Shown here: piece by piece, positions 11,500 to 39,265 of the stretch | Position numbering within the stretch: position 1 is the stretch's first letter | Layout: every line of letters starts with the position of its first letter | Assembly: GCA_945860955.1 (NCBI GenBank) | Contig: CAMATH010000061.1 | Location: 1-47,917, forward strand | Origin: Planctomicrobium piriforme | Lineage (GTDB): Bacteria > Planctomycetota > Planctomycetia > Planctomycetales > Planctomycetaceae | Length of the DNA stretch: 47,917 bases | Direction: 5' to 3' | Position numbers and translations under genes: made by a program | Notes under the pieces: generated by a model | Told to the model about the DNA's origin: nothing | What the model saw: only the letters and a program-made list of their open reading frames with translations | Databases searched by the model: none

Positions 11500-11559
11500 T
11501 CGGGAGATTCCTGATTCGCGGTGAGGTCGACGACAAGGCCGTCGTTCGAACGGATGAGA

Positions 11560-14500: not shown

Positions 14501-14688
14501 GAGCCTTTGGGCTCTTCGCCCGAGTGACACTTCACGCAGCGCAGGATCAGGAGCGGGCGGATCCGCTTTTCGTAATGGTCGACGGCCGCGTCGTCGGCGT
14601 ACAGCGCGGGAACGACGGCGAGCAGGGCGAGTGCAGTTAGGGCGAATGGGCGCGTCGGTCTAAGGAGGCGGGCTATGACTGAGTTCAT
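11560..14688 (-). CDS. PSD1 / planctomycete cytochrome C protein with DUF1549, LamG and DUF1553
   Basis: A 1042-residue exported protein. After a signal peptide (about 1-31) comes a planctomycete cytochrome c domain with one haem-binding motif, CVKCH (51-55), and the usual MPPGGKL loop. A LamG/concanavalin-like domain follows (about 158-385, from LQLWLSAADLQLADGD). Then comes DUF1549 (FVFSGMQAAGLSPAPPADKRT onward, with a second CARCH motif) and C-terminal DUF1553 (LARWIASTENPLTARVLVNRVWQHHFG; SQTLFLLNS). Such proteins form gene pairs with DUF1501, as seen here. Their role is not proven; the haem suggests electron transfer or redox activity at the cell surface. AGGATCC lies just before the ATG. 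Confidence 0.95.
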   Translation of the reverse strand: MNSVIARLLRPTRPFALTALALLAVVPALYADDAAVDHYEKRIRPLLILRCVKCHSGEEPKGSLRLEGTTELKGASGPVVVAGKPDESLLIRAIRQTEGLKMPPGGKLSDGQIADLVTWVQQGAYWPTSAPAANAADALAAAGEVAPLEPNAGSIASDLQLWLSAADLQLADGDKVFVWPDRSGHGRDVSATKGIRSDGTGLPGKFVKESAIQRRPAVRFDPETGLAASPANPIPITGDAELSMTVVVNLTPHDVGPPFDCVLCVGNPAHAPGDPGKPLAALIQINRGEKHALHFAGGWNHDASLGNGSFQSWYGQPVILTIVKTPGPIRTTTRIYLNSELAGVGEPGKLEGRDTVPEIQHRADVGAFLGRAVSWAGRIQGDVGEALVYSRALSDATRLGVESWLADKYGIALRSQELATRAKFTPEEKSHWAYQPVRFVEPPQVNETRWATSPIDRFVFSGMQAAGLSPAPPADKRTLLRRVTYDLTGLPPTPADYDAFERDDSPQAFAKVVDRLLDSPHYGEHWGRHWLDVVRYAESTANDANAVMRFAWRYRNYVIDALNRDLPYDQFVVEQLAGDLLPPSDDLSTRIRRVVATGFLMVGQKALAETDKEQSRIDVVDDQIDVTGRTFLGLTIGCARCHDHKFDAIRAVDYYALAGIFRSTEHFKDEVRNSSMWYEYPLFDSPGEKPYMVMAPRDTIPRDLRVHLRGNRFTLGRTVPRGFLQVLSPAVPKLTPGQSGRLELARWIASTENPLTARVLVNRVWQHHFGKGLVATSDNLGTRGEKPSHPELLDWLAGRFVKQGWSIKQLHRDIVLTGVYQQQYTPSAAALNADPDNRLLSHFPRRRLNAEEQRDSIFAVSGQLDRAGGSSESADILWKEAEVQDEKRGFGPNRMAADHPFYTDFRKRSVYLPVVRNMLPDVLALFDAADPNNVTAVRNETTVPSQTLFLLNSRLVREQSKHWAARLLADDKASDEDRITKAHREALGRSPTADELQDARDFLQSYLQAQAAEARPEADRRLAAWQSYCQTLLCGNEFAFLE

Positions 14689-26200: not shown

Positions 26201-26532
26201 CGTTTGATCAGGCCAATTTGTTCGGCCGTCAACGGCTCTCCCTCGGGTGGCATCTGCGGAACACCGTTCGCCCCCTGGATCGCGTCGAGCAGTAGGCTCT
26301 CCTGGAGATTGCCAGGAACAACCGCCGGCCCGCCGATTCCCCCTTTTTTCGCCAGAGCCGCGGTATCGAGCCGCAACTCGTTCCGTTGTTTCAACGTTCC
26401 ATGACAGGAATAGCACCGGCGTGACAGGATCGGCTTGATATCCTGGGTGTAGTCGACATCCTCTTCGGCCCACGCCCCCAGTGGAAACGAGCCGAGCAGC
26501 ACCAGCAGCGCTGGTAAAAGGGAGCGGAACAT
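23203..26532 (-). CDS. PSD1 / planctomycete cytochrome C protein with inserted LamG-like domain and coiled coil
   Basis: A 1109-residue exported protein with signal peptide (1-22), a haem motif CYSCH (40-44) and DUF1549 (ending near a second CARCHDHMYDP motif). Between DUF1549 and C-terminal DUF1553 sits a large insert. The insert has a concanavalin/DUF1080-like beta-sandwich (from FLDDFSAKKDDAWKVDSGEW) and then a long Ala/Glu/Leu-rich coiled coil (LAEKEYNLRLAEQQLADAER). DUF1553 is seen as LALAQWIANKSNPLTARVAIN and VPQQALALANSSLA. I chose ATG 26530-26532 because the signal peptide begins there; the frame is open to 26658. Unlike the gene at 11560, it has no DUF1501 partner beside it. It is divergent from the seven-gene run at 26781. 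The role is unknown; redox or polysaccharide work at the surface is the usual guess. Confidence 0.93.
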   Translation of the reverse strand: MFRSLLPALLVLLGSFPLGAWAEEDVDYTQDIKPILSRRCYSCHGTLKQRNELRLDTAALAKKGGIGGPAVVPGNLQESLLLDAIQGANGVPQMPPEGEPLTAEQIGLIKRWIETGAKSPSEVVPVDPSKHWAYQPPVRGNPPPASDPAWSQNPIDAYIAAGHSAQGLKASPQAAKNVLLRRVYLDLVGLPPTADELRSFLADNSADAYEKVVDRLLDSPQYGERWGRHWMDVWRYSDWDGYGAEVRESKPHIWRWRDWIVESLNADRGYDQMVREMLAGDELAPEDPQTVRATGFLVRNWFSFNRNVWLDATIEHTSKAFLGTTLNCARCHDHMYDPITQPEYYQFRAFFESHDVRTDRVPDQTDLAKDGLVRVYDAKADTPTFLFRRGDDKQPVTDQPLAAGVPGVFRASDLKVEPVALSPQAYYPGIRDFQQTEAQQLAQRDFENALLKRNEGEARLQEARKTLADFVASQGATPEKKPPTVAFLDDFSAKKDDAWKVDSGEWTWADGKLRQQTIQNAWTGLLAIPPHPTDCVIRVKLKSTGGQMYKSVGICFDYVDSQNFQGVYVSVSGKVQIFHHVKGQDAYPATGMKALPIEVGREYDLQVAVAGRLVNVSVDGALLVAYELPADRPTTGRFGLFTFDASAEFSRVEVTNVPADFALVSKIGEAPVPKNEAQLQQAVVVAERQVAFADRVLATALANRLWVQARIAADKAMFANPPSPQTKELAATAALAEKEYNLRLAEQQLADAERKLAEAKRTPGNVPPITVAEMAIAMATKARQEALEASRQPGEAYTKFGAVYPATSSGRRLALAQWIANKSNPLTARVAINHIWLRHLGSPLVPTVFDFGLNGKAPTHPELLDWLAVELMDHDWKMKPIHRLIVTSQAYQQQSQAKTADDSNKSRDPENLYLWRTNPRRLEAEAVRDATLVASGNLDLTRGGPELDENAGLQTPRRSLYFRNSKEKKMTFLDTFDRPNVVDCYRRSESIVPQQALALANSSLAIAESRRLAARLTEQAGPANETANVAAFITNAFEQILARSPNASERTECEAFLTAQTQKYSQPEGLTKFTAGVAAHVPASDNPHQRARENLVHVLFNHNDFITVR

Positions 26533-26651
26533 TACCTTGGGTCTCCAGCCGGGATCGGTGGCGCGGAACATCACGTGTTGCATCAGCGTGATTTTATGGC
26601 GATTGCGGTCGGGACGCCAGCGGGATGGAATGTGACGAACTTGAAACAATC

Positions 26652-26689
26652 GAGACACGTTGTCTCTGCGTCAGACTGTATGGTACACT
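26652..26689 (+). promoter_or_regulatory. candidate promoter and palindromic operator of the seven-gene operon
   Basis: A perfect palindrome GAGACA-cgt-TGTCTC (26652-26666) overlaps a possible -35 box TTGTCT (26660-26665). A possible -10 box TACACT (26684-26689) follows after 18 bp; both boxes match 4 of 6 consensus. It sits in the divergent gap between the second PSD1 gene and the operon, about 90 bp before the first ATG. The palindrome is certain; its role is inferred. Confidence 0.5.
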
Positions 26690-26780: not shown

Positions 26781-29219
26781 ATGACAGGCTCACCTGGACT
26801 CCGCCAAGAAGTCCTCGACGTCCTCGCACAACTTCGCGGCCGGATCCGCAGGTATGTGTTTCTGGAGGGCTTCGCTCTCGTTGTTTGCATCGTCGGGCTG
26901 GCGTTCTGGGTCTCTCTGATTCTCGACTACGGGCTGGAATTGCCTCAAGGAGCCCGCCGGGTTCTGCTGGTTCTAGCAGCCATCGTCACCGCCGCGGCGG
27001 CGATCTGGTACATCGGCCTGCGGGTCGTCCGGGGGTTTCGCAATCGGGCGCTGGCGCTGGTTTTGGAACGGCGTTTTCCCGAACTCAACGAGCGTTTGAT
27101 CACGGCGGTCGACCTCGCGGAAGGGGAACACACGGGACCGCCACTGACGGCGACAATGCTGGCGCAAACGACCAAAGAGGCGACCGACCTGTTGCACAAA
27201 CTGTCGCTGGGCGAAGTCTTCAACTCTTGGCCGTTGTTGCGGGCCGCCGGGCTGGCGTTGTTGCTCCTCGCGTCGATGGGAGGGTTCTACGCTGTCGCCG
27301 GTGACGTGTTTGAGACTTGGTACCAGCGCAATCTGCACTTTTCAGACATCACGTATCATCGCGATACGGAACTGCGGGTGTACGTTTTGGCCGACCCGGG
27401 AGAGCGTCCCGTGGACTTTCAGAACGGTGTCTACAAGCATCCACGAGGAGCCGACTTGGCGCTGGCGGTCGATGTGCTGCCCGAAAAAGTCGTCCCGCGC
27501 GAGGTTCATTATCAATATCGGGGAGTCGAAACCGCGGGGGCCGGCGACGGTTACATGACTCGGGTCGGGGATGGAACCTTTCGCCAGAAGCTCGCCGGAC
27601 TCAAAGATTCGGTGCGGCTCCACGTCCGCGGCGGCGACTTCCGCACCCGACAGCCGCTGTTGGTGCAGGTGGTTGACCCGCCGCAGATCGACCGCGTCAT
27701 GTTACAGTGCCTGTACCCCGATTATATGGGGAAGAACGAACGCGATACCGACGGCAAGACCGTGATGCGGGCGAAAGTGGACGTTCTGGGGGCACAGGTT
27801 TCGCTGCCCGCCGGGACCGACTTTGTCCTCGAAGCCAAGGTGAACAAGCCGTTGGTGGGGGTCCGACTGCAGACCGAGCAATTCGAGCTGTTGTTGACGC
27901 GGGACGGGGCGCAGTTGAAAGTCGGGTCGACCGGCGACGACAGTTCTCCCAAGTTCGACATCGCGGTGACGGAACCCCCCCTGGGAGAAGATGGTTCGGT
28001 CATTAGAATCCCGTTCGTTCTCTCACCAAAGCCGGCCCCGGCGATTGTCGACGACGCCGGCAAACCACTGTGGCCGATCCCCTTGCCCGCCGATGCCGCC
28101 CTGCGATTTCGGCTGCACGACGAAGATGACATTAAGAGTTCAGAACCGGTGCGGCTGAATGTCACCGCGATTCTCGATCAACCGCCGCAGGTCGACGTGC
28201 GTCTGAAAGGGATCGGCACATCGATCACCCGTCAGGCGACGATTCCGCTGGTCGGACAGATTCGCGATGCGGAAGAGGGGAGCCAGGTGTATGGCATGAT
28301 CGACGATTACGGCGTTGTCGAGTCGCGATTTGACTATCGGATCGAAGGCGGAGCCGCCGCTCCGACCGAGGAATTCAAAACGCGACCGTTTAACAGTCCC
28401 GCCAATGGTCGGATGGAAGTTCCGGTTACCGAACGATTCTCCGTTCTTGATCTCGATGTGGCCGTCGGTCAGAAACTCACGCTGAAAGTGGTCGCCCGCG
28501 ATGGGGATACACTCACGGGACCGCACTCGTCTTCCAGCACGGCGTACAACTTTCAAATTGTCTCCGACGACGAATTGATCGCACTGGTCGCGGTCAAGGA
28601 GTTGAACATCCGTCGGCGTTTTGAACAGATTCTGGAAGAGGTCAAAAACAACCGGAAGGATCTCTTGCTACATCGGACCCGACTCGAAGAAGCGAAGCCG
28701 TTGCGTGCGAAGGCCGACGGTCAGCGGACCAAGGAAGAGGCCGAGCGACTGGCGGTGCTGGAGACGGGGGCACTGACTTCGGTCGACCGGGGTGTTTCGG
28801 GGATCCGCAAGAATCACAACGAGACACAGTCGATTGAAGAGGAATTTCGAGATGTGCGGGACGAACTCGACAACAATTCGATTCCCGACGTGCGTCCCAT
28901 GCTCGAGCGGATCGAGAATGGCATCGTGAAACCGCTGCATGAGATCAACACCATCGATTACAACGATTGCGATGATTTGTTGATCAAACTGCGGGAAGCG
29001 CTGGAGCAGCAGGCGGATCCATTTCCTCCGTTCGAGGCGGCCGCCGACCAGCTCGGCAAGACGATTGAACGTTTGGAAGCGGTGTTGGCCCAGATGCTGA
29101 AGAACGAAGACTACAACAAAGTGTTGGAGATGCTGCGGAGTGTGATCCGTGGCCAGGAAGACCTGAAGAAGCAGACCGAAATCGAACGCAAGAAGAAGCT
29201 CATTGAGGGATTGAAGTAG
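26781..29219 (+). CDS. DUF4175-like membrane protein
   Basis: An 812-residue protein with two N-terminal spans (about 27-47 and 61-81) and a third at about 153-173. A long extracytoplasmic part of beta-rich segments follows (about 190-610), then a helical C-terminus rich in Glu/Arg (about 610-812, RRFEQILEEVKNNRKDLLL). The stretch between the spans, ALVLERRFPELNERLITAVDL, is a hallmark of DUF4175-like proteins found in planctomycete envelope gene clusters. The function is unknown. I chose ATG 26781, where a basic helix leads into the first span. It is the first gene of a same-strand run reaching 37824; the next gene starts 34 bp after its stop. Confidence 0.8.
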   Translation: MTGSPGLRQEVLDVLAQLRGRIRRYVFLEGFALVVCIVGLAFWVSLILDYGLELPQGARRVLLVLAAIVTAAAAIWYIGLRVVRGFRNRALALVLERRFPELNERLITAVDLAEGEHTGPPLTATMLAQTTKEATDLLHKLSLGEVFNSWPLLRAAGLALLLLASMGGFYAVAGDVFETWYQRNLHFSDITYHRDTELRVYVLADPGERPVDFQNGVYKHPRGADLALAVDVLPEKVVPREVHYQYRGVETAGAGDGYMTRVGDGTFRQKLAGLKDSVRLHVRGGDFRTRQPLLVQVVDPPQIDRVMLQCLYPDYMGKNERDTDGKTVMRAKVDVLGAQVSLPAGTDFVLEAKVNKPLVGVRLQTEQFELLLTRDGAQLKVGSTGDDSSPKFDIAVTEPPLGEDGSVIRIPFVLSPKPAPAIVDDAGKPLWPIPLPADAALRFRLHDEDDIKSSEPVRLNVTAILDQPPQVDVRLKGIGTSITRQATIPLVGQIRDAEEGSQVYGMIDDYGVVESRFDYRIEGGAAAPTEEFKTRPFNSPANGRMEVPVTERFSVLDLDVAVGQKLTLKVVARDGDTLTGPHSSSSTAYNFQIVSDDELIALVAVKELNIRRRFEQILEEVKNNRKDLLLHRTRLEEAKPLRAKADGQRTKEEAERLAVLETGALTSVDRGVSGIRKNHNETQSIEEEFRDVRDELDNNSIPDVRPMLERIENGIVKPLHEINTIDYNDCDDLLIKLREALEQQADPFPPFEAAADQLGKTIERLEAVLAQMLKNEDYNKVLEMLRSVIRGQEDLKKQTEIERKKKLIEGLK

Positions 29220-29253
29220 TTCGTCCCTCGCCGACTTTCCGGGAGTCCAGTCG

Positions 29254-31206
29254 ATGTCGAATATGTCACGCGCGATCTTGGTACGACTGTCGTTGGCGGT
29301 CGGTTTGTTCTGTTTGGTCGGATGGACCGGCTCCTCACTTCGGGGTGACGACGCCCCGGCGAAGGGGGCACCGGCACAGGAAACTCTGCCGAAGGAGGCC
29401 CCGGCCGCAGAGGGGGCCGCGTCGGACGCAGCTCCTGGTGCCCCGGGAGAAGCGGCACCTGTCGCTGGATTGTCTTCGTCTCAAGAGTCGCTGCAACGAC
29501 AGTACAAACGGTTCGAAGAGGGGCTTTACCGGATCGCCGAGGGACTGAGGAAGAGCGATCCCGAACGAGCCGACCTGCTGTTGCGGGCGATTGGCAAAAG
29601 CAAAGAGGAACGGATTGGTACTCAAATGAGCGAACTGGCCACGCTGTTGCGGGGCCAGAAGCTGGGGGATGCAATCGAGCGGCAGGAAGATCTGATCGGC
29701 AATCTGCAGACCATTCTCGATCTCTTGCTGAGTGAAGACCGGCAGAAGGAATTGAAGGACGAACAAAAGCGGATCAAGGCGTACCTTGAAGAAGTCAACA
29801 AACTGATCGGCAAGGAAAAGGGGAACCGCGCCGATAACGAACGGGGCGTTCCGCTCGACGATGTCGAGGCCCAGCAGAAGAAGATCCAGGACCAGACCGA
29901 CGCCCTGCAACGGAAGATCAACAAAGACGACGAGGCCAAAGCCGCCAAGTCGCAATCCAAGTCCGGTGATAGCGGAGCGAAGTCCCCGAACGGCAAGCCG
30001 ACCGACCCGATGCCCGGCGACAAGTCGGGTGAAAAGAACGGCGACAAATCCGGCGACAAGCCGGGAGAAGATAAACCGGGGGATAAGTCCGGGGACAAAA
30101 ATGGAGACAAGTCGGGCGACAAATCCGGTGAAAAGAAGGAAGGGGACACGCCCGCGGAGAAGTCCGGTGAAAAGTCGGGAGAGAAGAAAGAGGGAGACAA
30201 GCCCGGCGACAAATCACGTGACAAGCCCGGTGACAAGTCGGGGGAAGCAAAGCCCGGTGAACCCAAAGAGGGGGAAGGAAAACCGAGCGAAGGAAAGCCC
30301 AGTGAGGGAGAGCCTCAGGAGGGTAAGCCGCAATCCGGTCAACCGCAGCCTGGGCAGCCTCAGCAGGGTCAACCGGGTCAAAGCGGCCCGAAAACTCCCG
30401 GCCGAGAGGAACTCGAACGGGCCAAGGAAGCGATGGAACGGGCAATCGAGAACCTGAAGAAGAACAAACGTCACGACGCCTCGGACGATCAGGACGACGC
30501 GCTGGCGGAACTGCAACGGGCCAAAGATAAGCTCGAAGAAATCCTGCGGCAGTTGCGCGAAGAAGAAAAAGAACGCTTCCTCGCGATGCTGGAGGCCCGC
30601 TTCCAGCGGATGTTGACGATGCAACTGCTGGTCTACGATGGAACGATCAAGTTGTCGCGAACGTCGGCTGCGGACCGAGCCGAGAAGCACTCGGCGCGGG
30701 CTTTGCAACTGGCGCGGCAGGAAGACGAAATCGCTTTGGAGGCAACGAAGGCGGTTACGCTGCTGCGTGAGGAGGGAACCGCCGTCGCGTTTCCTGAAGC
30801 GGTCGAGATGATGCGGGACGACATGCGACACGTCTCCCGGCGGTTGGAAAAGACCGATGTGGGAGAAGTGACGCAAGCGGTCGAAAAGGACATCATCGAC
30901 GCGCTCGAAGAAATGATCGACGCTCTTCAAAAGGAGATGGAGAAGAGCAAAAAGAAGGACAAGCAACAGCAGCAGCAACAGGATCAGCAGCAACAGGATC
31001 CCGAACTGGTTGACAAGCTCGCTGAACTCAAAATGCTGCGAACGCTGCAACTGCGAATCAACAATCGCACCCGAAGACTGGGTCGTGAAGTCGACGGAGA
31101 GCAGGCGAAGCAGGCTGAAGTGGTCGACCAGCTCCAGGAGCTGGCCGAGCGCCAGGCGCGTGTTCAGAAAGCGACCTACGACATCGCGACCGGTCGTAAC
31201 AAGTAA
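29254..31206 (+). CDS. exported coiled-coil protein with Lys/Ser/Gly/Asp repeat tract
   Basis: A 650-residue protein of unknown family. A hydrophobic leader (about 8-25) is followed by an Ala/Pro/Glu-rich stretch and a helical region (LRGQKLGDAIERQEDLIGNLQ). Next is a low-complexity tract of GDKSG/GEKSG-type repeats turning into GKPSEG and Gln/Pro-rich repeats (about 250-378). The rest is long coiled coils with a glutamine run near residue 575 and a helical end (LQLRINNRTRRLGREVDG). Such proteins are likely extended and surface- or wall-associated. The ATG at 29254 has GGGAG eight bases upstream. It is second in the operon; its length and coiled coils suggest a partner or spacer for the preceding membrane protein. 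Confidence 0.8.
   Translation: MSNMSRAILVRLSLAVGLFCLVGWTGSSLRGDDAPAKGAPAQETLPKEAPAAEGAASDAAPGAPGEAAPVAGLSSSQESLQRQYKRFEEGLYRIAEGLRKSDPERADLLLRAIGKSKEERIGTQMSELATLLRGQKLGDAIERQEDLIGNLQTILDLLLSEDRQKELKDEQKRIKAYLEEVNKLIGKEKGNRADNERGVPLDDVEAQQKKIQDQTDALQRKINKDDEAKAAKSQSKSGDSGAKSPNGKPTDPMPGDKSGEKNGDKSGDKPGEDKPGDKSGDKNGDKSGDKSGEKKEGDTPAEKSGEKSGEKKEGDKPGDKSRDKPGDKSGEAKPGEPKEGEGKPSEGKPSEGEPQEGKPQSGQPQPGQPQQGQPGQSGPKTPGREELERAKEAMERAIENLKKNKRHDASDDQDDALAELQRAKDKLEEILRQLREEEKERFLAMLEARFQRMLTMQLLVYDGTIKLSRTSAADRAEKHSARALQLARQEDEIALEATKAVTLLREEGTAVAFPEAVEMMRDDMRHVSRRLEKTDVGEVTQAVEKDIIDALEEMIDALQKEMEKSKKKDKQQQQQQDQQQQDPELVDKLAELKMLRTLQLRINNRTRRLGREVDGEQAKQAEVVDQLQELAERQARVQKATYDIATGRNK
30004..30380 (+). 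repeat. degenerate coding repeat tract (GDKSG units, then Gln/Pro/Gly units)
   Basis: In-frame imperfect tandem repeats of 12-15 bases encode GDKSG, GEKSG, GDKPG and GEKKEG units. From about 30240 they become GEPKEGEGKPSEGKP-type units and then QPGQPQQGQ. The units differ at third positions, so the tract is old or under selection for the peptide and is not a recent DNA expansion. Confidence 0.85.
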
Positions 31207-31310
31207 CGAACGCGTTCTCGATTGCTGCGCACTGTGGCCTAATTGTGACACGTAACACAACCACCAAATTCCGCCTCGCGTCCCTGCGATCCCCTGGGGG
31301 GAATGACTTT

Positions 31311-32435
31311 ATGACCGCGACACGATTTTCGAACCAGACGCTGACGTTCCTGACGGTCGCCCTCGCGATGCTGCTGGCGGCCAACGCTCAGGGATTCGCG
31401 GAGGAGACGGTTCAGGAAGGGACACCGCCAGCCGCTGCCCCGGCCGACCCGGCGGCACCGGCTGCCCCCGCCCCCCCGGTGCTGGTCGCGCCACCGTCGG
31501 CCGAGACGGTCCGGGGAAAAATCACCGCTTGGCTGGCCCAGCGCGGTACGACGGACGCCGGTCTGGTCGAGAAGATCGCCCAACTTTGGACGCTGGGTGA
31601 TGAGCAGCGAACTCCGGAAGAACTCTTCGAACTGGCGATCGCCACACTGTCTGAAGTCGACGCCGACACGAAGGCGTTTGTCGACGCCTGTGGCCTGACT
31701 GCCCCGCCATTGCTCCCGCCCGAACCGAAGCTGCTGGAGCGAGTGACCGAGGGACCGTTCTACACAGCGAACCTGGGTCTGTTCTACGCCAAGTATCTGG
31801 TCCATCGGCAGATGTTCGACGAAGCGCTCGCCCTGCTGGAGACGCTGCCCGCCACCGAGGTGGTCGACCCGGCAGCGCTCTTGTTTTCGAAAGCGGTCTG
31901 CCAGCACCACCTGCTGCAAAAAGCTCCTGGCCTGGCGACAATCGAACAGCTCTTGAAGAACACCACCGGTGTGCCGATGCGGTACGCCACTTTGGCGTCG
32001 CTCATGCAGTACGATCTCGAGTCGCTGCAAGACAAATCGCTGGATGAAGTCGCGAAGCGCATGTTTGACGTGGAACGTCGGCTGAAGCTCGCCCGCACGG
32101 GAGAAAAAGTTCAGAAGCGCGAAGAAGAGGTGATCACCACGCTGGATGAGATCATCAAGAAGATCGAGGAACAGCAAGGCGGTGGCGGAGGTTCCGGGGG
32201 AAACAGTAATAAGTCATCGGCCCCCGCGCAGGACAGCGTGATCAAGGGTTCGACCGCGCCCGGCAACGTCGATCCCAAGAAATTCAAGAATACGGGGGAG
32301 TGGGGAGATCTCCCGCCGAAGGAGCGGAGCAAGGCCAAAGAGGACATCGCACGCAAGTTCGGGGCGCACTACGCCGAGGCGGTGGAGAAATTCAACGTAA
32401 AACAAGCGGGTCGTCCCGCGCGGAAAGACAAGTAG
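31311..32435 (+). CDS. exported helical protein of unknown function
   Basis: A 374-residue protein. A signal peptide (about 1-30, TLTFLTVALAMLLAANAQGFA) leads into an Ala/Pro-rich linker and then a helical region that resembles TPR-type repeats (LFYAKYLVHRQMFDEALALLETLPATEVVDPAALLFSKAV). A Gly-rich linker follows. The end, EWGDLPPKERSKAKEDIARKF, is like the short LPPxxR tail seen in other planctomycete envelope-cluster proteins. The start is ATG 31311, preceded by a G-rich ribosome-binding site; GTG 31245 would add 22 residues before the signal peptide. The next gene starts 6 bp after the stop, so the two are surely co-transcribed. Confidence 0.75.
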   Translation: MTATRFSNQTLTFLTVALAMLLAANAQGFAEETVQEGTPPAAAPADPAAPAAPAPPVLVAPPSAETVRGKITAWLAQRGTTDAGLVEKIAQLWTLGDEQRTPEELFELAIATLSEVDADTKAFVDACGLTAPPLLPPEPKLLERVTEGPFYTANLGLFYAKYLVHRQMFDEALALLETLPATEVVDPAALLFSKAVCQHHLLQKAPGLATIEQLLKNTTGVPMRYATLASLMQYDLESLQDKSLDEVAKRMFDVERRLKLARTGEKVQKREEEVITTLDEIIKKIEEQQGGGGGSGGNSNKSSAPAQDSVIKGSTAPGNVDPKKFKNTGEWGDLPPKERSKAKEDIARKFGAHYAEAVEKFNVKQAGRPARKDK

Positions 32436-32441
32436 CCCCCC

Positions 32442-33599
32442 ATGTTTCAAGCGCTGCTGCTGTCGCTGGCGTTCGCCGCCCTTCCGCCCGCGGAGGTGGA
32501 AACCATCGTGGGGGATCGACTTGTCGGCGAACTCGTGGAGTTGAACGACGAGTCGCTGGTTTTGAAGGTCGGAACCGAATCGCGCACGATCAAAAGTTCG
32601 CTCGTCCTGGAGATTCGGCAGCCTGTTCCGGTGGTGCCCCTGCCCCCCGGCCCGCGGGTGGAGTTGCTGGATGGTTCCCGCCTGTCGTGCAAAGAGGTGA
32701 CGGTCGGACGGGACCGGGCGCGGCTCACGCTCCATTCGGGTGCGGAAACCCAACTCCCCACAAACCGGGTCGCCTCGATTCGCTTGGGCGAGTCATCGCC
32801 TGCTCTCGACGACGCGTGGAACTCGCTCAAAGATCGTGAATCCAAAAACGATCTCCTGGTGGTTCGCAAAGACGATGTGTTGGACTTTCTGCCGGGCGTC
32901 GCGGGGGAATTCGGAGAGAAGATCACTTTTTTGGTCGACGGCGAAGAATTGCCAGTGTCGCGCGACCGCGTTTATGGTGTGGTCTACCGCAAACGCAACA
33001 TCGCCGCCGCGAAGGTGACTTGCCAGCTCCGCTTGGCGACGGGAGACTCGCTGCAGGCACTGGGAGCGACGCTCGCTGACGGGGAATACAAAATCCGACT
33101 GGCAGGGAACGTGGAATTGAAAATTCCCGCCGACCAGGTGGCGGCTCTCGACTTCAGCGCGGGAAAAGTGCGTTACCTGTCTCAAATGGAGCCGCGCGAC
33201 AAAAAGCTGGTTCCTCTGTTCGACCTGCCCCGCGACGTCGAGCGGGATCGGAGCGTTCTGGGTTCGCCTTTGACTCTTGGGGGAAAGGTGTATTCGCGCG
33301 GTTTGGGGATCTTTCCTCAAACGCGGTTGAAATACCGGATCGGGGGGGAGTTCGCGCGATTTCGCGCGGTGGCGGGGATTGACGACGCGGCCCCGCGACT
33401 GAAGACTTCGGTCCATCTAACAATTTCCGGCGACGGGAAACCGCTCTATGACGCCGAGATCGTGCCGGCGGACGCACCCCGGACAATTGATCTCGATGTC
33501 ACGGGTGTGCGTGAACTCGATTTGCTGGTCGACTTTGGAGAAGACCAGCTCAACATCGGCGACTTCCTCGATCTGGCGGATGCCAAGCTGACGAAATGA
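32442..33599 (+). CDS. exported protein with C-terminal NPCBM domain
   Basis: A 385-residue protein with a short leader (MFQALLLSLAFAALPPAEV). A beta-rich N-terminal half of unknown family carries repeated small beta modules (VGDRLVGELVELNDESLVLKV; LLDGSRLSCKEV). The C-terminal part (about 255-385) matches the NPCBM carbohydrate-binding pattern: GGKVYSRGLGIFPQTRLKYRI, FRAVAGIDDAA, VHLTISGDGKPLYD and a VRELDLLVDFGED strand. NPCBM modules bind glycans, so it may anchor to wall or capsule polysaccharide. The stop codon overlaps the ATG of the following HtrA gene (ATGA), which indicates translational coupling. Confidence 0.82.
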   Translation: MFQALLLSLAFAALPPAEVETIVGDRLVGELVELNDESLVLKVGTESRTIKSSLVLEIRQPVPVVPLPPGPRVELLDGSRLSCKEVTVGRDRARLTLHSGAETQLPTNRVASIRLGESSPALDDAWNSLKDRESKNDLLVVRKDDVLDFLPGVAGEFGEKITFLVDGEELPVSRDRVYGVVYRKRNIAAAKVTCQLRLATGDSLQALGATLADGEYKIRLAGNVELKIPADQVAALDFSAGKVRYLSQMEPRDKKLVPLFDLPRDVERDRSVLGSPLTLGGKVYSRGLGIFPQTRLKYRIGGEFARFRAVAGIDDAAPRLKTSVHLTISGDGKPLYDAEIVPADAPRTIDLDVTGVRELDLLVDFGEDQLNIGDFLDLADAKLTK

Positions 33600-35374
33600 C
33601 CACCTTGTTTTTGGAATCACCGATGCGTCCCCTCCGCGTTGTGGCTTGGGCTCTGCTGACACTGGCCGTGGCCTGGGGAGAGTCGCAGGGGGCCGACGAC
33701 GCAGTTCTGGCGGCACAAAAAGCGCGCGTTGACGTTGTCAACAAGTGTGCCCCGTCAGTAGTCGCGATTTTTGGGCCCGGTGGCGGCGGTGGTGGTTCGG
33801 GAGTGTTGATCACGCGTGACGGGTATGCGCTCACGAATTTCCACGTGACGAGTGGTGCCGGCGACTTCATGAAGTGCGGCCTTAACGACGGCGTGCTCTA
33901 CGACGCGGTGATTGTCGGGATCGATCCGACGGGGGATGTCGCCCTGGTGAAGCTCTTCGGCCGGGACGATTTTCCCGTCGCCACACTGGGTGACAGCGAC
34001 CAGCTCGCCGCTGGCGACCCCGCGTTCGCCATGGGGAATCCGTTTCTGCTTGCGACCGATTTTTCTCCCACGGTGACATTCGGGATTGTCAGTGGCGTTC
34101 ATCGGTACCAAGGTCCCGCAGGCACGTTTCTGGAATACACCGACTGCATTCAGGTCGACGCGTCGATCAATCCGGGAAACTCCGGGGGACCGCTGTTCAA
34201 TTCCGATGGTGAACTGGTTGGAATCAATGGTCGCGGTTCGTTCGAAAAGCGCGGCCGGGTGAACTCGGGAGCGGGTTATGCGATCTCCATCAACCAGATC
34301 AAGAATTTTCTCGATCACCTCCGCGGTGGATTGATTGTCGATCACGCCACTCTGGGGGCGGCGGTCGTTTCCAAGGAGGACGGTGCCGTCATCGTGTCGA
34401 ACATTCTCGACGCCAGCGAGGCGTTCCGTCGCGGACTGCGCGCCGACGATGAAATCGCTTCCTTCGCCGGTCGCCCGATTCGCAGCGTCAATCAGTTCAA
34501 AAACATCCTGGGGATTTATCCCAAAGGGTGGAAGCTGGCGCTCGTCTATCGCCGAGAGGGACGTAAGAGCGAGATTTTGGTTCGGTTGCGCGGTCTGCAT
34601 CGGCAATCGGAATTGACGTTAACCCCACCCGACCGCCCCGCCGACCAGCCCGGTCCCGACGACAAAGACAAGGGGAAAAAGAAGCCGGGGGGACCACGGC
34701 CGAATGCCAAGCCGCCGCAGAAACCGAAGCCGAAGCCTCCCGAACAATACGCCAAATTCCTGGTGGAGCGTCCGGGATTCGCCAATTACTACTTCAACCA
34801 GATTGAACGCGCGCGGGTGCTGGGGCGGCTCTCGGCGTGGGGCGATTTTAAAGGGGTCGCCGGCGCGTGGAAGCTGAAGACCCACGCCATCGCGGCCGAC
34901 GTATCGGCCGACTTCACTATCGCCGACAACCTCGTCGGTCTGGTTCTCGACGGCGGCAAACAGGCATTCGCTCAGGAGACGACCGCCGAGGCGAAGTATG
35001 AGGACGAGCCTCCCGGAACGGGGGGGCTGTTGCTGGCGCTGTCGCATCTCCGTTGGCTCCTGGTTCACGGTCCGGAAGGATTCAGCGAGTGCTATTACGC
35101 GGGAAGTGAGCCCCTGGACGGGACCGGACCGTTGGTCGATGTCGTTTATGCCGAGCGCTATTCGGCCCGGACCCGCTTCCTGTTCGATAAGGGGACCGGA
35201 GCGCTTGTCGGGAGTGACACCGAACGGGACGATGACGTCGATCCGTGTGAACTGAGGTTCGAAGGGTTGATGAACGTTGGTGAGCGCCGGCTTCCCCAGC
35301 AAATCACCGTTCATCATGGGGACCGCGAATACGGACGGTTCCAACTCAAGGAAGCGGCTTTGGCCACACCCTGA
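33596..35374 (+). CDS. HtrA/DegP-type serine protease with PDZ and unique C-terminal domain
   Basis: A 592-residue exported protease with an intact triad: His83 in TNFHVT, Asp114 in GDVALVK, Ser196 in GNSGGPL. A PDZ domain follows (about 275-345, ASEAFRRGLRADDEIASFAGRPI), then a Pro/Lys-rich linker (about 345-385). The C-terminal domain of about 205 residues contains strands such as ARTRFLFDKGTGALVGSD and RRLPQQITVHHGDREYGRFQL, with a look of the LolA/LppX fold. HtrA proteases degrade or hold misfolded envelope proteins. The start at 33596 overlaps the previous stop; ATG 33623 is an alternative that gives a tighter signal peptide and would shift the numbering by nine. Confidence 0.92.
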   Translation: MTTLFLESPMRPLRVVAWALLTLAVAWGESQGADDAVLAAQKARVDVVNKCAPSVVAIFGPGGGGGGSGVLITRDGYALTNFHVTSGAGDFMKCGLNDGVLYDAVIVGIDPTGDVALVKLFGRDDFPVATLGDSDQLAAGDPAFAMGNPFLLATDFSPTVTFGIVSGVHRYQGPAGTFLEYTDCIQVDASINPGNSGGPLFNSDGELVGINGRGSFEKRGRVNSGAGYAISINQIKNFLDHLRGGLIVDHATLGAAVVSKEDGAVIVSNILDASEAFRRGLRADDEIASFAGRPIRSVNQFKNILGIYPKGWKLALVYRREGRKSEILVRLRGLHRQSELTLTPPDRPADQPGPDDKDKGKKKPGGPRPNAKPPQKPKPKPPEQYAKFLVERPGFANYYFNQIERARVLGRLSAWGDFKGVAGAWKLKTHAIAADVSADFTIADNLVGLVLDGGKQAFAQETTAEAKYEDEPPGTGGLLLALSHLRWLLVHGPEGFSECYYAGSEPLDGTGPLVDVVYAERYSARTRFLFDKGTGALVGSDTERDDDVDPCELRFEGLMNVGERRLPQQITVHHGDREYGRFQLKEAALATP

Positions 35375-35437
35375 TTTTTTCTCGCGACCGACCCCATCCA
35401 CCTGATCAGATCCTTGAGTTCCTTCCCGAACCGAAAC

Positions 35438-36586
35438 ATGACCGCTGAACGGCACTTCAACTTCCACACGATGCTGCGGATCGGACTGGTCATCGCCACT
35501 TCGGTGGCCGGTTCGATGACAGCCGTCGCCCAACAGGCGGCAGCGCCCGAAGAGGCTCCCGAAAACGCGAAAGCCAATAATCCGGTGGCCACGCGCAGCA
35601 ACCGGGTGATCGAGCAGTCCTCAAGGCGGGTGGTAAAGATCTTCGGCGCGGGGCGCATGAAGAATCTGTTCGCCTACAGTTCCGGTTTTCTCGTGACTCC
35701 CCAGGGTCATATCGTGACCACATGGAGCCACGTTCTCGACGAGCAGGAAGTGACGGTCGTTTTGCACGATGGCCGGCGGTTCAGTGGAAAAATCGTCGGT
35801 GCCGAGCCGCAACTCGATTTGGCGGTCTTGAAGATCGACGCCGACGATTTACCTTACTTCGACCTCGAAGAGGCGGTGACGCCGGCAGTGGGGGCGCGGG
35901 TGCTGTCGTTCAGCAATATGTTCAAGGTGGCCGCCGGCGATGAACCGGTTTCGGTGATGCATGGGGTGGTCGCCGCCCGGACCCGTCTGGTCGCACGGCG
36001 GGGCGTGTTTGATTCCGCATACAGTGGTCCGGTGTTGGTGATCGATGCGATCACCAACAACCCGGGTTCGGGGGGAGGGGTCATTACGACGCGCGACGGG
36101 GCGCTCGCTGGCATGATCGGCAAAGAGTTGCGCAATGCCCAAAGCAACACCTGGATGAACTATGCGATTCCGATCGCCGAGCTGAAAGTTCCGATTCAAG
36201 ACATCATTTCCGGCCGGTTCACCCCAAAGACGAATCCGCTGGAGTCGGCCACCGCGCAAGCCCGGTTTCTGCCGATCGATTTTGGACTGGTGATGGTTCC
36301 GGATGTGATCTTCCGGACCCCCGCGTTCGTTGACGCGGTGATCCCCAACACCTCGGCTGCCGACGCCAAGTTGCGTGCCAACGATCTGGTCCTGTTTGTG
36401 AATGATCAGCTCATTCAGTCGGTCCGAATGTTGAACGAGGAATTGGGGCGACTGGAGCCGGGCGAGATTCTGAAACTGGTTGTCCGTAGAGACAACGTCC
36501 TCGTCCCGGTCGAGTTGCCGATTCCGAACGAGGCGCGTAAGCCGCGGAAACGGGCAAACGATCCGGACGACGAAAAATCGGAGTGA
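35438..36586 (+). CDS. second HtrA-type serine protease with PDZ domain
   Basis: A 382-residue exported protein: leader (about 13-31), trypsin-like domain and one PDZ domain (about 275-365, ADAKLRANDLVLFVNDQLIQ). The triad is present: His98 in WSHVL, Asp127 in LDLAVLK, Ser211 in NPGSGGGV. The Ser motif is GSGG rather than GNSGG, and the oxyanion-loop context differs from DegP, so its specificity may differ from the upstream paralogue. The start is ATG 35438; TTG 35414 and ATG 35471 are alternatives. The last base of its TGA is the first base of the ATG of the glycosyltransferase gene (TGATG), so the two are translationally coupled. Confidence 0.9.
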   Translation: MTAERHFNFHTMLRIGLVIATSVAGSMTAVAQQAAAPEEAPENAKANNPVATRSNRVIEQSSRRVVKIFGAGRMKNLFAYSSGFLVTPQGHIVTTWSHVLDEQEVTVVLHDGRRFSGKIVGAEPQLDLAVLKIDADDLPYFDLEEAVTPAVGARVLSFSNMFKVAAGDEPVSVMHGVVAARTRLVARRGVFDSAYSGPVLVIDAITNNPGSGGGVITTRDGALAGMIGKELRNAQSNTWMNYAIPIAELKVPIQDIISGRFTPKTNPLESATAQARFLPIDFGLVMVPDVIFRTPAFVDAVIPNTSAADAKLRANDLVLFVNDQLIQSVRMLNEELGRLEPGEILKLVVRRDNVLVPVELPIPNEARKPRKRANDPDDEKSE

Positions 36587-37824
36587 TGGTTCGCGAGCCA
36601 GCAGCGGCCGAGATGTTTCTGGGCCAACGCCTGTTGTTCATCACTGAGCGATTCGCTCCCGATGTGGGGGGAGTCGCGCGGAGCGCGGCCCGAACGGCGG
36701 CGGAGATCGCCCGCTTGGGTGTTGAGGTCGAGGTTCTCGCCTGGACGCGCGGCCTGCCGGCGGGACAGCTCGAAACCCGTGTCATCCGCGATGCGACCGC
36801 GTCCGCGACCGGAGTCGTGGTCCACCGCCTGGGGTTGTTTGCGAATCTCGACTACTCGTTGCAGCATACGCTGACGCTGGTCGAAGCGATCCATCGCCAG
36901 CATCCGTACGACGCCGTCTGGGGGCACTATCTGTTTCCCGCGGGCTTCCTCGGTGTGCTGTTCGCGGGCACAGTCGGGATCCCCGCGACCGTCAGCGCGC
37001 GGGGCAATGATGTCGACATGCTGATGTTTCCTCCTGGGGACTTCGCGCGACTCACCTGGACGCTGGAACGGGCCGACTGCGTTACCGCCGTTTCGGAAGA
37101 TCTGGCTCGCAAGGTCCGTCTCCTCGCGGGAAAAAGTCGGCCGGTCGTGGTCGTTCCGAACAGTGTGGACTTCGAACTGTTCCACCCGTCCCCCCCCGAC
37201 CCCGCGCTGCGGTTCGCATTGGGGATTTTGCCTGAGGAAGCGGTATTGTGCTTCAGTGGCGAACTTCGGCACAAAAAGGGCCTGATTCCGATGCTGCAGG
37301 CGTTTCGGGAAGTCCGCGCCGTTCGACCGGCGTGCCTGTTGGTGATTGGGGAGGTCCGCACCCGCGATCAGGCGCTGCTCGCGTCGTTCGCGGCGGAGGA
37401 TCCGGGCGCCCGCGCGCGGATTCTCATCACAGGCCATCTGGAGGATCCCCGGGAGGTCGCCCGCCACTTGCACCTGTGCGATCTCTTCCTGCAGCCCTCC
37501 ATGTGGGACGGGCTTCCCAACGCGGTCCTGGAAGCGATGGCGTGTGGCAAGATCGTGGTCGCCAGTGAAGCGGGAGGATTGCCCGAAGTGATCGAGCAGG
37601 GCAAGACCGGTTTCATGGTCCCCCGCATGGAACTCGATCGCCTGAGTTTCGTGCTGCTGATGGGACTGTCACTGCCAAGGGAACCACGTGAGGCGATGGA
37701 GCGCGCCGCCCGGGAACGGATTCTGAGTCAATTTTCCGGCGAACGGGAGCGGATCGCGCTCCGTCAGACATTGAGCCACTTCTGGGGGCGGGAAGCGACG
37801 ACTGGCCCCGCACCAGCCGAATAA
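36586..37824 (+). CDS. GT4-family glycosyltransferase
   Basis: A 412-residue GT-B-fold enzyme of the GT4 family. It has an N-terminal domain with the glycine-rich loop FAPDVGGVARSA and the acceptor-side segment WGHYLFPAGFLG. The C-terminal nucleotide-sugar domain carries CFSGELRHKKG and WDGLPNAVLEAMACG (retaining GT4 motif), then EAGGLPEVI. GT4 enzymes transfer sugars from activated donors to lipids, proteins or glycans, usually on the cytoplasmic side of the membrane. No signal peptide is seen. A GTG at 36583 would add one residue. Coupling to the HtrA gene suggests the glycan product belongs to the same envelope function. It ends only 4 bp before the convergent DUF1501 gene. Confidence 0.93.
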   Translation: MVREPAAAEMFLGQRLLFITERFAPDVGGVARSAARTAAEIARLGVEVEVLAWTRGLPAGQLETRVIRDATASATGVVVHRLGLFANLDYSLQHTLTLVEAIHRQHPYDAVWGHYLFPAGFLGVLFAGTVGIPATVSARGNDVDMLMFPPGDFARLTWTLERADCVTAVSEDLARKVRLLAGKSRPVVVVPNSVDFELFHPSPPDPALRFALGILPEEAVLCFSGELRHKKGLIPMLQAFREVRAVRPACLLVIGEVRTRDQALLASFAAEDPGARARILITGHLEDPREVARHLHLCDLFLQPSMWDGLPNAVLEAMACGKIVVASEAGGLPEVIEQGKTGFMVPRMELDRLSFVLLMGLSLPREPREAMERAARERILSQFSGERERIALRQTLSHFWGREATTGPAPAE

Positions 37825-37828
37825 GGCG

Positions 37829-39265
37829 CTACGTCAACACGTCGGCGATGGGTGTCCCCGGACAGACGATCTGCGGGCGATTGCCGGCGTCGTTGAGAAT
37901 CAATCCTGGGGGGACACCCAGACAATGATACACGGTTGAGATCAAATCGACGGGGGGCACGGGATTCACCGTGGGATAGGCGGCGTACCGGTCGGACGCG
38001 CCATACACCACGCCCCCCCGCGTTCCTCCTCCCGCGAGAACGCTGGTGAACACGTTGGGCCAATGATCGCGACCGTCGCGCCCCGCGCCGGCGTCGCTGT
38101 TCACCTGGCCAATCTTGGGTGTCCGCCCGAATTCTCCGGTCCACAGCACCAGCGTTTCCTCCAGCAACCCCCGTTCCTCCAGATCGTCGAGCAGCGTGGA
38201 AAACGCCAGATCCGCCGGGGGCATCAGCCGATCTTTCAGGTCAATGAAATTCCGACTGTGAGTGTCCCAGTAGACCGACACGTTTTTGATCCCGTCGTTC
38301 GGCCAGAAGACCGTGACCAGCGGCACCCCATGCTCGATCAGTCGCCGGGCCTGCAAGACCGACTGTCCATGCGGGTTGAGACCATAGCGGGCCCGAATCT
38401 CGGGAGACTCGGCTGCCAGGTCAAACGCCCCCTGACTGACGGCCGAATTGATGAGATCGAAACTGCGGCGGTAATGTCGATCCATCACCCCCACGGAACC
38501 GGGGGAGTCGGCCCCCCGCAGTTGCCGGTCGATTTCCCGCAACAGCGCTTTGCGATCGTTGAGCCGACTGATGGAAACATCCGCGGGTCGGTCGAATTCC
38601 CCCACGCGGTAGCCGGGTTCATTCGGGTTGTCGTCGATGATCAGCGGGTCGAAATTTTGGCCAAGCCAGCCAGCCCACTGTCCCCGGCTCTCTTCAACGA
38701 AACGGGGAACATCCCCTGGCAGTTTGGGACGCATCGAGACAAACGGAGGCAAGGGATCGCGGCCGCGCCCCAGCCTCGCAAGAACAGAACCGATGTGGGG
38801 CCAGTCGGTGTACTTCGAACCGGTGGGAAGCGGGGGCATCCCGGTGAGCAGGAAGTGCGTCGCCACGGTATGGTCGACATTGTTGTGCGTCATCGAACGG
38901 ATGATCGCCAGTCGATCGGTCCGCTGCGCCAGCAGCGGGAAATGCTCGCTGATGTGAATATCGGGGACGCGCGTCGCGATGGGGTTGAACTCACCCCGAA
39001 TCTCCGCCGGCGCGCCGGGTTTGAGATCCCAGGTCTCCTGCTGAGCCGGCCCGCCCCACATGAAGAGCAGGATACACGCCTTCGCCTTGCCAAAACTCCG
39101 CGACTCTTGGGCCCGGGCGAGCGCGAGGTCACCAGACGATTGCTCCTGGCCAGCGAGCAGCCTGGGCAATCCCAATCCCAGCAGGCTCAACGAGCCAGCG
39201 CGCAGCAGTGCCCGTCGCTCCAGTTGTTGAGCCAGCAGGTGGTTCGAGCAAAACGAAGTGGACAT
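37829..39265 (-). CDS. DUF1501 family exported protein (unpaired)
   Basis: A 478-residue DUF1501 protein with an Arg-Arg leader (ERRALLRAGSLSLLGLGL), consistent with Tat export. Landmarks: ACILLFMWGGPAQQETWDLKP near residue 65, IIRSMTHNNVDHT, VLWTGEFGRTPKIG, and GRDHWPNVFTSVLAGGGTRGG with the Asp/His cluster. It differs clearly from the other DUF1501 protein in the window, so it is not a recent duplicate. It lacks an adjacent PSD1 partner: upstream on the same strand lies the Lhr helicase gene, 73 bp away. Confidence 0.94.
   Translation of the reverse strand: MSTSFCSNHLLAQQLERRALLRAGSLSLLGLGLPRLLAGQEQSSGDLALARAQESRSFGKAKACILLFMWGGPAQQETWDLKPGAPAEIRGEFNPIATRVPDIHISEHFPLLAQRTDRLAIIRSMTHNNVDHTVATHFLLTGMPPLPTGSKYTDWPHIGSVLARLGRGRDPLPPFVSMRPKLPGDVPRFVEESRGQWAGWLGQNFDPLIIDDNPNEPGYRVGEFDRPADVSISRLNDRKALLREIDRQLRGADSPGSVGVMDRHYRRSFDLINSAVSQGAFDLAAESPEIRARYGLNPHGQSVLQARRLIEHGVPLVTVFWPNDGIKNVSVYWDTHSRNFIDLKDRLMPPADLAFSTLLDDLEERGLLEETLVLWTGEFGRTPKIGQVNSDAGAGRDGRDHWPNVFTSVLAGGGTRGGVVYGASDRYAAYPTVNPVPPVDLISTVYHCLGVPPGLILNDAGNRPQIVCPGTPIADVLT

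What the first reader, a model, noticed from the sequence alone, without database searches (positions are those of the whole stretch)
26781..37824. Seven-gene envelope operon with scaffold-like proteins, two active HtrA proteases and a coupled glycosyltransferase
Seven plus-strand genes follow each other with gaps of 34, 104, 6, -4, 63 and -1 bases: a DUF4175-like membrane protein, a repeat/coiled-coil protein, a TPR-like exported protein, an NPCBM glycan-binding protein, two HtrA proteases with complete triads and a GT4 glycosyltransferase. I know of no named system with this set. The content suggests a cell-surface structure that is assembled, glycosylated and policed by its own proteases.
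Basis: partly seen in the sequence, partly recalled or inferred. Interest (0 to 1): 0.62.

Follow-up and report, generated by a model that had tools for sequence, protein, structure and literature searches.

The report
Planctomycete MoxR operon with dead proteases
Six of these seven genes are the detached back half of an old Planctomycetota gene set that couples a MoxR chaperone machine to one working cell-envelope protease and two inactivated copies of it, a pairing not found in the literature searched; the sugar-transferase gene is a late addition.

Summary
The seven ORFs are real, at the stated coordinates and spacing. The grouping g1-g6 (DUF4175-like, coiled coil, TPR-like, NPCBM, HtrA, HtrA) is not local: its order is kept in 32 of 40 loci fetched from the same class. 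There it usually continues MoxR-DUF58-BatA-VWA upstream and ends with a third HtrA-like gene (g8). The window's genome keeps BatA/VWA and g8 on other contigs. The GT4 gene is not part of the system: 0 of 40 class loci have a relative of it; beside g6 it was seen elsewhere only in one same-genus genome. The claim 'two active HtrA proteases' is wrong. g5 has an intact triad in 106 of 106 distinct homologs; g6 has no serine at the nucleophile position in 122 of 122; g8 has Tyr there in 86 of 87 (one Trp). g5 and g6 are fused in 3 of 18 out-of-class loci. g6 and g8 occur in the same 108 of 148 class genomes, even where the genes are scattered. Best reading: a Bat-type MoxR/VWA chaperone coupled to an envelope HtrA regulated by two pseudoproteases, for maturation or quality control of envelope proteins, not a glycosylated surface structure. 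Genomic coupling is well supported; mechanism and substrate are inferred.

The parts
26781..29219 (+). g1, DUF4175-like membrane protein, 812 aa: N-terminal TM helices, Ig-like beta domains (about 198-593), C-terminal helical bundle (596-811)
   Evidence: ORF; hydropathy; AlphaFold model pLDDT 85.7; generic Ig/FNIII-like Foldseek and VIA matches; DUF4175 hit in 2 of 39 homologs; homolog in 145 of 148 class genomes
29254..31206 (+). g2, probably exported coiled-coil protein with a low-complexity DKSG/PGE linker; shares a C-terminal segment with g3
   Evidence: ORF; N-terminal hydrophobic segment; hhalign g2 versus g3 prob 95.8, E 7e-9
31311..32435 (+). g3, probably exported helical TPR-like protein, Gly/Gln linker, C-terminal WGxLP...HYRxAIExYF motif
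   Evidence: alignment A1, model pLDDT 82.5, Foldseek; homolog in 130 of 148 class genomes, in family f2 only weakly
32442..33599 (+). g4, NPCBM domain (residues 245-384) behind an N-terminal region without a family
   Evidence: Pfam PF08305 100.5 bits
33596..35374 (+). g5, HtrA serine protease with intact triad H83/D114/S196, PDZ and about 250 aa C-terminal extension
   Evidence: triad intact in 106 of 106 distinct homologs resolved at these columns, one further fragment not resolved
35438..36586 (+). g6, HtrA pseudoprotease (Trypsin_2 + PDZ); nucleophile replaced (motif NPG[AS][AG]GG in this family). Start is 35438 or 35471
   Evidence: 0 of 122 distinct homologs carry Ser at the nucleophile column
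36583..37824 (+). g7, GT4 glycosyltransferase; lineage-specific gene behind g6, not part of the conserved system

Best explanation
g1-g6 are the envelope half of a Planctomycetota gene set MoxR-DUF58-BatA-VWA-g1-g2-g3-g4-g5-g6-g8. In the window's genus the set is broken into at least three loci, and in part of the genus a GT4 gene has been acquired behind g6. Shown by sequence: the set, its order, its co-retention, one active and two inactivated HtrA proteins, and g5-g6 fusions. Inferred mechanism: cytoplasmic MoxR (AAA+) with DUF58, and the two membrane VWA proteins, form a Bat-type chaperone that works with the membrane protein g1 (Ig-like domains and helical bundle, probably periplasmic) and the exported helical proteins g2/g3. 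The NPCBM protein g4 anchors or recognises a glycan or wall-linked substrate. g5 is the only protease. g6 (held to g5, in some lineages covalently) and g8 use their PDZ and dead protease domains to bind substrate or gate g5. The outcome is ATP-assisted maturation or quality control of envelope proteins with controlled proteolysis.
For: Order g1-g6 in 32 of 40 class loci, with g8 behind in 30, VWA2 in front of g1 in 32, and the whole BatA-to-g8 run in 25. Partner families in relatives by Pfam: DUF58 174.5 bits, BatA 52.5, MoxR AAA_3 212.6, g8 Trypsin_2 72.9 and PDZ_2 84.2. The window genome keeps DUF58 (cut by the contig end)/BatA/VWA2 on C82 and g8 on C26. Outside the class 13 of 18 fetched loci hold g5, g6 and g8 (three of these with g5 and g6 in one ORF), and L257 has MoxR-DUF58 between g4 and g5. 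g6 and g8 co-occur: the same 108 of 148 class genomes, compared by listing, including G132 and G021, single-contig genomes where g1, g3, g6 and g8 lie from about 50 kb to several Mb apart. Triads. Precedent for a dead HtrA activating a live one: MamO/MamE (PMC4794232, abstract). Precedent that MoxR/VWA pairs act on protein complexes: NorQ/NorD and RavA/ViaA (starts of abstracts in the listing).
Against: No expression, interaction or mutant data. In Leptospira deletion of all bat ORFs gave no change in growth rate or shape and no protective role against oxidative stress could be shown (PMC3557215, abstract). The MoxR/VWA half can stand without the HtrA trio: in the one f2 locus fetched (L099) and in the out-of-class stretches L255/L256 it has g1 and g4 but no trio, and no f2 genome in the class sample has a g8 row (E<=1e-60) or a g6 row above 108 bits. 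8 of 40 class loci do not keep the g1-g6 order, 6 of them in the window's own family. In the window genome the two halves are unlinked and the MoxR gene of the set was not located (contig ends in DUF58). The sides of the membrane are deduced from hydropathy only.
Confidence: 0.55

Rival explanations
1. The HtrA trio and the MoxR/VWA half are two separate envelope functions that merely share regulation and neighbourhood in Planctomycetota, without physical coupling.
For: The MoxR/VWA half occurs without the trio (L099, L255, L256; f2 genomes); in the window's genus and in G132, G021, G018 and G116 the genes are split.
Against: Order kept across the class and outside it; MoxR-DUF58 placed directly before g5 in L257; g6/g8 co-retained after scattering; g5-g6 fusions tie at least those two together.
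Confidence: 0.22
2. The pseudoproteases act mainly as metal or ligand binders in the manner of MamO, serving an assembly rather than a proteolytic task.
For: MamO is a degenerate HtrA that binds transition metals and activates MamE (PMC4794232, abstract); g8 keeps Tyr in the nucleophile place in 86 of 87; VWA domains often bind metal (recalled).
Against: No MamE/MamO membership: 112 bits (MamE, g5) and 54.8 bits (MamO, g6) against cut-offs of 800. I did not search for a conserved metal site.
Confidence: 0.12
3. One reading: a self-contained operon building a glycosylated surface structure with its own GT4 and two active proteases.
For: GT4 overlaps g6 by 4 bases and is kept there in a same-genus genome; g4 carries an NPCBM domain.
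Against: No GT4 relative in 40 of 40 class loci nor behind g6 in same-genus G149; g6 is not a protease by its active site.
Confidence: 0.04
4. A MoxR-vWA conflict (VMAP/iSTAND ternary) system with trypsin effectors.
For: MoxR hits bpMoxR (50.2 bits); such systems are reported in planctomycetes, and nearly all trypsin domains in their effector position are inactive (PMC7159879, passages).
Against: MoxR scores far higher as AAA_3 (212.6 bits) and sits beside DUF58 and BatA; the HtrA proteins are separate PDZ proteins with leader-like N termini (by eye); 'DUF58' and 'BatA' do not occur in that paper's text. Broad retention in a class (108 of 148) is unlike a mobile conflict system (inference).
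Confidence: 0.02

Closest known systems
Bat (Bacteroides aerotolerance) MoxR-DUF58-BatA/B operons
   Same: MoxR, DUF58, a BatA-N/VWA membrane protein and a second, weakly matching VWA protein in a row, followed by a membrane protein and a TPR-like protein
   Different: Adds NPCBM, one active HtrA and two HtrA pseudoproteases, plus g1/g2; BatB-E were not tested by models of their own
MamE/MamO of magnetosomes
   Same: One catalytic HtrA working with a catalytically dead HtrA (PMC4794232, abstract)
   Different: Scores far under the MamE/MamO cut-offs, two pseudoproteases, a MoxR/VWA context, Planctomycetota
DegP/DegQ/DegS HtrA proteases
   Same: g5 aligns over protease and PDZ with an intact triad
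   Different: g5 has a C-terminal extension without a Pfam match, scores under the curated Do cut-off (213 of 416.2 bits), and comes with two dead paralogs
AdvA (DUF4175) of Acinetobacter baumannii
   Same: DUF4175 membrane protein, there with a division role (PMC7481262, passages)
   Different: g1 is tied to DUF4175 only through 2 of 39 homologs and has long Ig-like and helical parts
MoxR-vWA VMAP/iSTAND ternary systems
   Same: MoxR plus VWA, often with inactive trypsin-like domains (PMC7159879, passages)
   Different: DUF58/BatA type here; HtrA-PDZ proteins are separate genes

Membership tests
HtrA/Do serine protease (g5) | Trypsin-like domain, His-Asp-Ser triad, PDZ domain | tested here: met
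   Trypsin_2 109.3 bits, PDZ_2 27 bits (at its cut-off of 27); triad in 106 of 106 distinct sequences resolved; aligns with DegP
HtrA/Do serine protease (g6 as an active enzyme) | Nucleophile serine in GNSGG | tested here: not met
   0 of 122 distinct sequences have Ser in that column; register supported by the alignment with DegQ-family chain 6z05, GaaGG against GNSGG
HtrA/Do serine protease (g8 as an active enzyme) | His-Asp-Ser triad | tested here: not met
   Tyr in 86 and Trp in 1 of 87 at the Ser column; His and Asp places mostly replaced (motif counts; alignment)
Bat (MoxR-DUF58-BatA-VWA) operon | MoxR, DUF58, BatA N-terminal domain plus VWA in a row | tested here: met
   In relatives. 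Window genome: DUF58 (partial)-BatA-VWA2 on C82; MoxR not seen because the contig ends; same-genus G148 and G150 show MoxR-DUF58-BatA-VWA2
Bat operon | BatB/C/D/E orthology of VWA2, g1, g2, g3 | not tested
   Only similarity of position and type was noted; no Bat-specific models or alignments were compared
DUF4175 (PF13779) | Match to the Pfam model | tested here: inconclusive
   No hit for the window g1; 2 of 39 homologs hit, best E 2.3e-12
MamE/MamO | NCBIfam equivalog score at or above 800 bits | tested here: not met
   MamE 112 bits (g5), MamO 54.8 bits (g6)
BshA and other named GT4 equivalogs (g7) | Score above curated cut-off | tested here: not met
   BshA 120.1 bits against 273.7; the other 24 of the 25 rows shown (of 35) are lower and under their cut-offs
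VMAP/iSTAND MoxR-vWA ternary system | Third component VMAP/iSTAND and vWA-fused effectors | tested here: inconclusive
   No VMAP/iSTAND model was run by name; MoxR hits bpMoxR weakly

The most novel reading that the evidence does not exclude
A Planctomycetota-wide trans-envelope machine in which a cytoplasmic MoxR AAA+/VWA chaperone drives or gates an envelope HtrA protease through two permanently inactivated HtrA subunits (one with a conserved Ser-to-Tyr replacement). It would be an ATP-linked periplasmic protease complex with built-in pseudoprotease regulators, unlike the free DegP/DegQ cages.
Probability: 0.35. Interest if true: 0.78.

Novelty: new variant of a known kind. Interest (0 to 1): 0.6.

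Why it matters
Bat-type MoxR/VWA operons are found in several phyla but their job is unsettled (e.g. no phenotype in Leptospira, PMC3557215, abstract). Here one is tied, inside and outside one class of Planctomycetota, to an envelope protease with two conserved dead partners, which gives the chaperone a likely client compartment and output (proteolysis) and makes its function testable in a tractable planctomycete. It also adds a setting other than MamE/MamO for HtrA pseudoproteases kept under constraint. The window is a natural experiment: the operon has come apart, yet its located parts are retained.

Tried and rejected
GT4 as a member: rejected by neighbourhoods. g6 as an active protease with a shifted serine: the window's GSGGG could by eye be slid by one, but the family motif NPG[A/S][A/G]GG and the alignment with 6z05 put the serine in the Asn place, and 105 of 122 homologs have Ala or Gly at the nucleophile column. 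Decay of g6/g8 as pseudogenes: rejected, since mean pairwise identity over 1500 random pairs (0.46, 0.43) is not far below that of g5 (0.51). Conflict-system reading: see rivals.

Led nowhere: Foldseek with the g3 model (no match at E<=0.001); Foldseek/VIA with g1 gave only generic Ig/FNIII matches. The Planctopirus limnophila transposon-essentiality paper (PMC10632474; passages) has no Plim_17xx, 18xx or 19xx in its main text; that the operon would fall in that range is my estimate from genome position, and the supplement could not be read here, so essentiality is open. The anammox paper found with Planctomycetes+HtrA+MoxR shows no such operon in the passages seen. PMC8195603 was looked at for MoxR/planctomycete/PDZ passages only; PMC7203096 has no MoxR in the part held; PMC13061223 was seen only in the listing. 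'Not in print' rests on (0 papers; 1; 1; 5) of one open-access library; (9 papers on HtrA pseudoproteases) was seen as a listing, and of it only PMC4794232 was opened (outline and abstract).

Selections made: of 145 class genomes with a g1 hit, 40 were fetched (21 from the window's family, two of these from one genus, and 19 from other families); some loci are cut by contig ends (e.g. L088, L090, L098, L101), which lowers the counts. The genome-contig scan kept the best 80 of 398 relatives; in my count of the listing, g8 lies in 49 of 80, and GT4 beside g6 in 1; L160 (g6 78% identical) shows neither g8 nor GT4 behind g6. The 18 out-of-class loci come from 148 out-of-class genomes with a g3 row (my count), mostly the better-scoring ones. 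Rows with weak scores were dropped by bit thresholds written in the scripts. In one search the columns printed for the g8 His and Asp were set one residue off and are not used; the g8 statement on these rests. Thresholds (E<=1e-30; E<=1e-60) differ, so weaker g8 copies could be missed.
Full report
WHAT IS THERE. Seven plus-strand ORFs at 26781-37824, gaps 34, 104, 6, -4, 63, -4. Neighbours on both sides are on the minus strand: 23203-26658, which clusters with the DUF1549/DUF1553 gene at 11560-14688, and a DUF1501 gene at 37829-39265. g4 has an NPCBM domain, g5 and g6 Trypsin_2 plus PDZ, g7 GT4 domains. g1, g2 and g3 have no Pfam hit above cut-off; g1's link to DUF4175 rests on 2 of 39 homologs. 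Hydropathy gives TM helices in g1 and a leader-like segment in g2 and g3; the N termini of g4-g6 look leader-like to the eye only.

NEIGHBOURHOODS. A class-wide search found g1 in 145 of 148 genomes and g3 in 130 of 148 (in family f2 the g3 rows are weak and cover mainly its C-terminal part). I fetched 40 loci around g1. In 32 of 40 the order g1-g2-g3-g4-g5-g6 is kept on one strand; in 30 of 40 a further gene, g8, follows; in 32 of 40 a VWA gene precedes g1; in 25 of 40 the run from BatA to g8 is complete; in 0 of 40 is there a relative of the window's GT4 gene at E<=1e-5 (the same query scored 915 bits on the window). Pfam identifies the upstream genes in relatives as MoxR (AAA_3), DUF58, BatA-N with VWA, and a second protein with VWA hits under the cut-off. 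The 8 loci without the full order are L063, L067, L069, L071, L078, L079 (all in the window's family), L099 (family f2) and L101 (cut short).

THE WINDOW IS THE EXCEPTION. In the window's own genome the DUF58-BatA-VWA2 genes are on C82, where the contig ends inside DUF58 so that MoxR is not seen, and g8 is on C26. Same-genus genome G149 has g1-g6 with no g7 scored behind g6; same-genus G148 has g5-g6-g7 with GT4 93% identical; of the four genomes of the genus searched, two (G000, G148) have this GT4. Loci L236 and L161 (g6 71% and 68% identical) still have VWA2-g1-...-g6, and L236 also g8. So the split and the GT4 look derived within the genus. The GT4 may be translationally coupled to g6 (4-base overlap) but was not seen there beyond this genus.

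ONE LIVE, TWO DEAD. Pooling all loci and keeping distinct sequences: g5 has His, Asp and Ser in 106 of 106 (one more is a fragment). g6 has no serine at the nucleophile column in 122 of 122 (Ala 70, Gly 35, others 17); its His and Asp are kept in 86 and 75 of 122. g8 has Tyr in 86 and Trp in 1 of 87; its His and Asp places are mostly replaced (motif counts; alignment). In the alignment of the g6 profile with the DegQ-family chain 6z05 its GaaGG falls on GNSGG. Mean pairwise identities are 0.51, 0.46 and 0.43, so the dead proteins are constrained, not decaying.

LINKAGE BEYOND SYNTENY. g6 (198 bits or more) and g8 are found in the same 108 of 148 class genomes; the only extra g6 row is a weak HtrA match in G048 (107.9 bits) (compared by listing). 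The 40 genomes without are the 37 of family f2 in the sample plus G006, G011 and G121 (my count). In single-contig genomes G132 and G021 g1, g3, g6 and g8 lie about 50 kb to several Mb apart and are all kept. The one f2 locus fetched keeps MoxR-DUF58-BatA-VWA2-g1 and a g4 homolog (L099). Outside the class, 18 loci were fetched (L241-L258): 13 hold g5, g6 and g8; in L246, L250 and L252 g5 and g6 are one ORF of 973-979 aa; in L257 MoxR-DUF58 sit between g4 and g5. L242, L255, L256 and L258 lack the trio in the stretch held, L247 is cut at g5. A phylum-wide g3 profile search hits 176 of 343 genomes, many by the C-terminal part alone.

STRUCTURE. g1 model (pLDDT 85.7): TM helices, Ig-like domains, helical bundle. 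g3 model (pLDDT 82.5): helical repeats. g2 and g3 share about 110 aligned columns, strongest in a coiled-coil segment (hhalign prob 95.8, E 7e-9).

HOW IT PROBABLY WORKS. Shown: gene set, order, co-retention, one live and two dead HtrA proteins, fusions. Inferred: MoxR/VWA acts as a chaperone, as for NorQ/NorD and RavA/ViaA (starts of abstracts in listing); g1 and g2/g3 carry the work across the membrane; g4 recognises a glycan or wall-linked partner; g5 cleaves; g6 and g8 regulate or hold substrate, as MamO does for MamE (abstract). Substrate and energy coupling are unknown. Against: deletion of all bat genes in Leptospira had no detected phenotype in growth, shape or stress (abstract), and the halves are separable (L099, L255, L256, window genus).

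NAMES. The phylum is Planctomycetota by the record titles.

VERDICT. An ordinary-looking operon claim turns into a fragment of a system spread over a class and beyond it in Planctomycetota, which none of the papers I opened describes in the parts seen. Interest 0.6; new variant of a known kind (Bat-type MoxR/VWA operon with an HtrA/pseudo-HtrA module).

Noticed in passing
window 7879-9309: Another Trypsin_2/PDZ gene (45.1 and 51.5 bits) of a different HtrA-like group, on the plus strand.
   Followed up: no
window 10075-14688 and 37829-39265: DUF1501 and PSCyt1-DUF1549-DUF1553 genes side by side; a second DUF1501 gene borders the operon.
   Followed up: no
window 18158-19735: 525 aa protein with Sua5/YciO/YrdC and HypF C-terminal domains but no acylphosphatase or zinc-finger hit at E<=1e-5: a short HypF.
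   Followed up: no
window 39339-44342: Lhr-type large helicase with winged-helix domains.
   Followed up: no
window 5179-6459: FAD-dependent tryptophan-halogenase-like protein (110.6 bits).
   Followed up: no
L062, L075, L080, L081, L082 after g8: A shared gene family follows g8 in 5 of 40 loci; the L062 member is BacA (251.3 bits; the UppP role is recalled), a hint towards lipid-linked envelope polymers.
   Followed up: partly
L062 15898-17865, L064 16091-18016 and other g8 proteins: In the class g8 is about 650 aa with, in L064, weak alpha/beta-hydrolase hits in its C-terminal part (under cut-off); the matching elbow motif varies widely. Most out-of-class g8 ORFs are shorter.
   Followed up: partly
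L099 9840-12030: In the f2 locus a protein without Pfam hit and a prenyltransferase/squalene-cyclase-like protein take the place of g2-g3.
   Followed up: no
L236 10985-12290: About 1.3 kb without a member of the system lies between g6 and g8 in a relative, the same spot where the window's lineage has the GT4 gene.
   Followed up: partly
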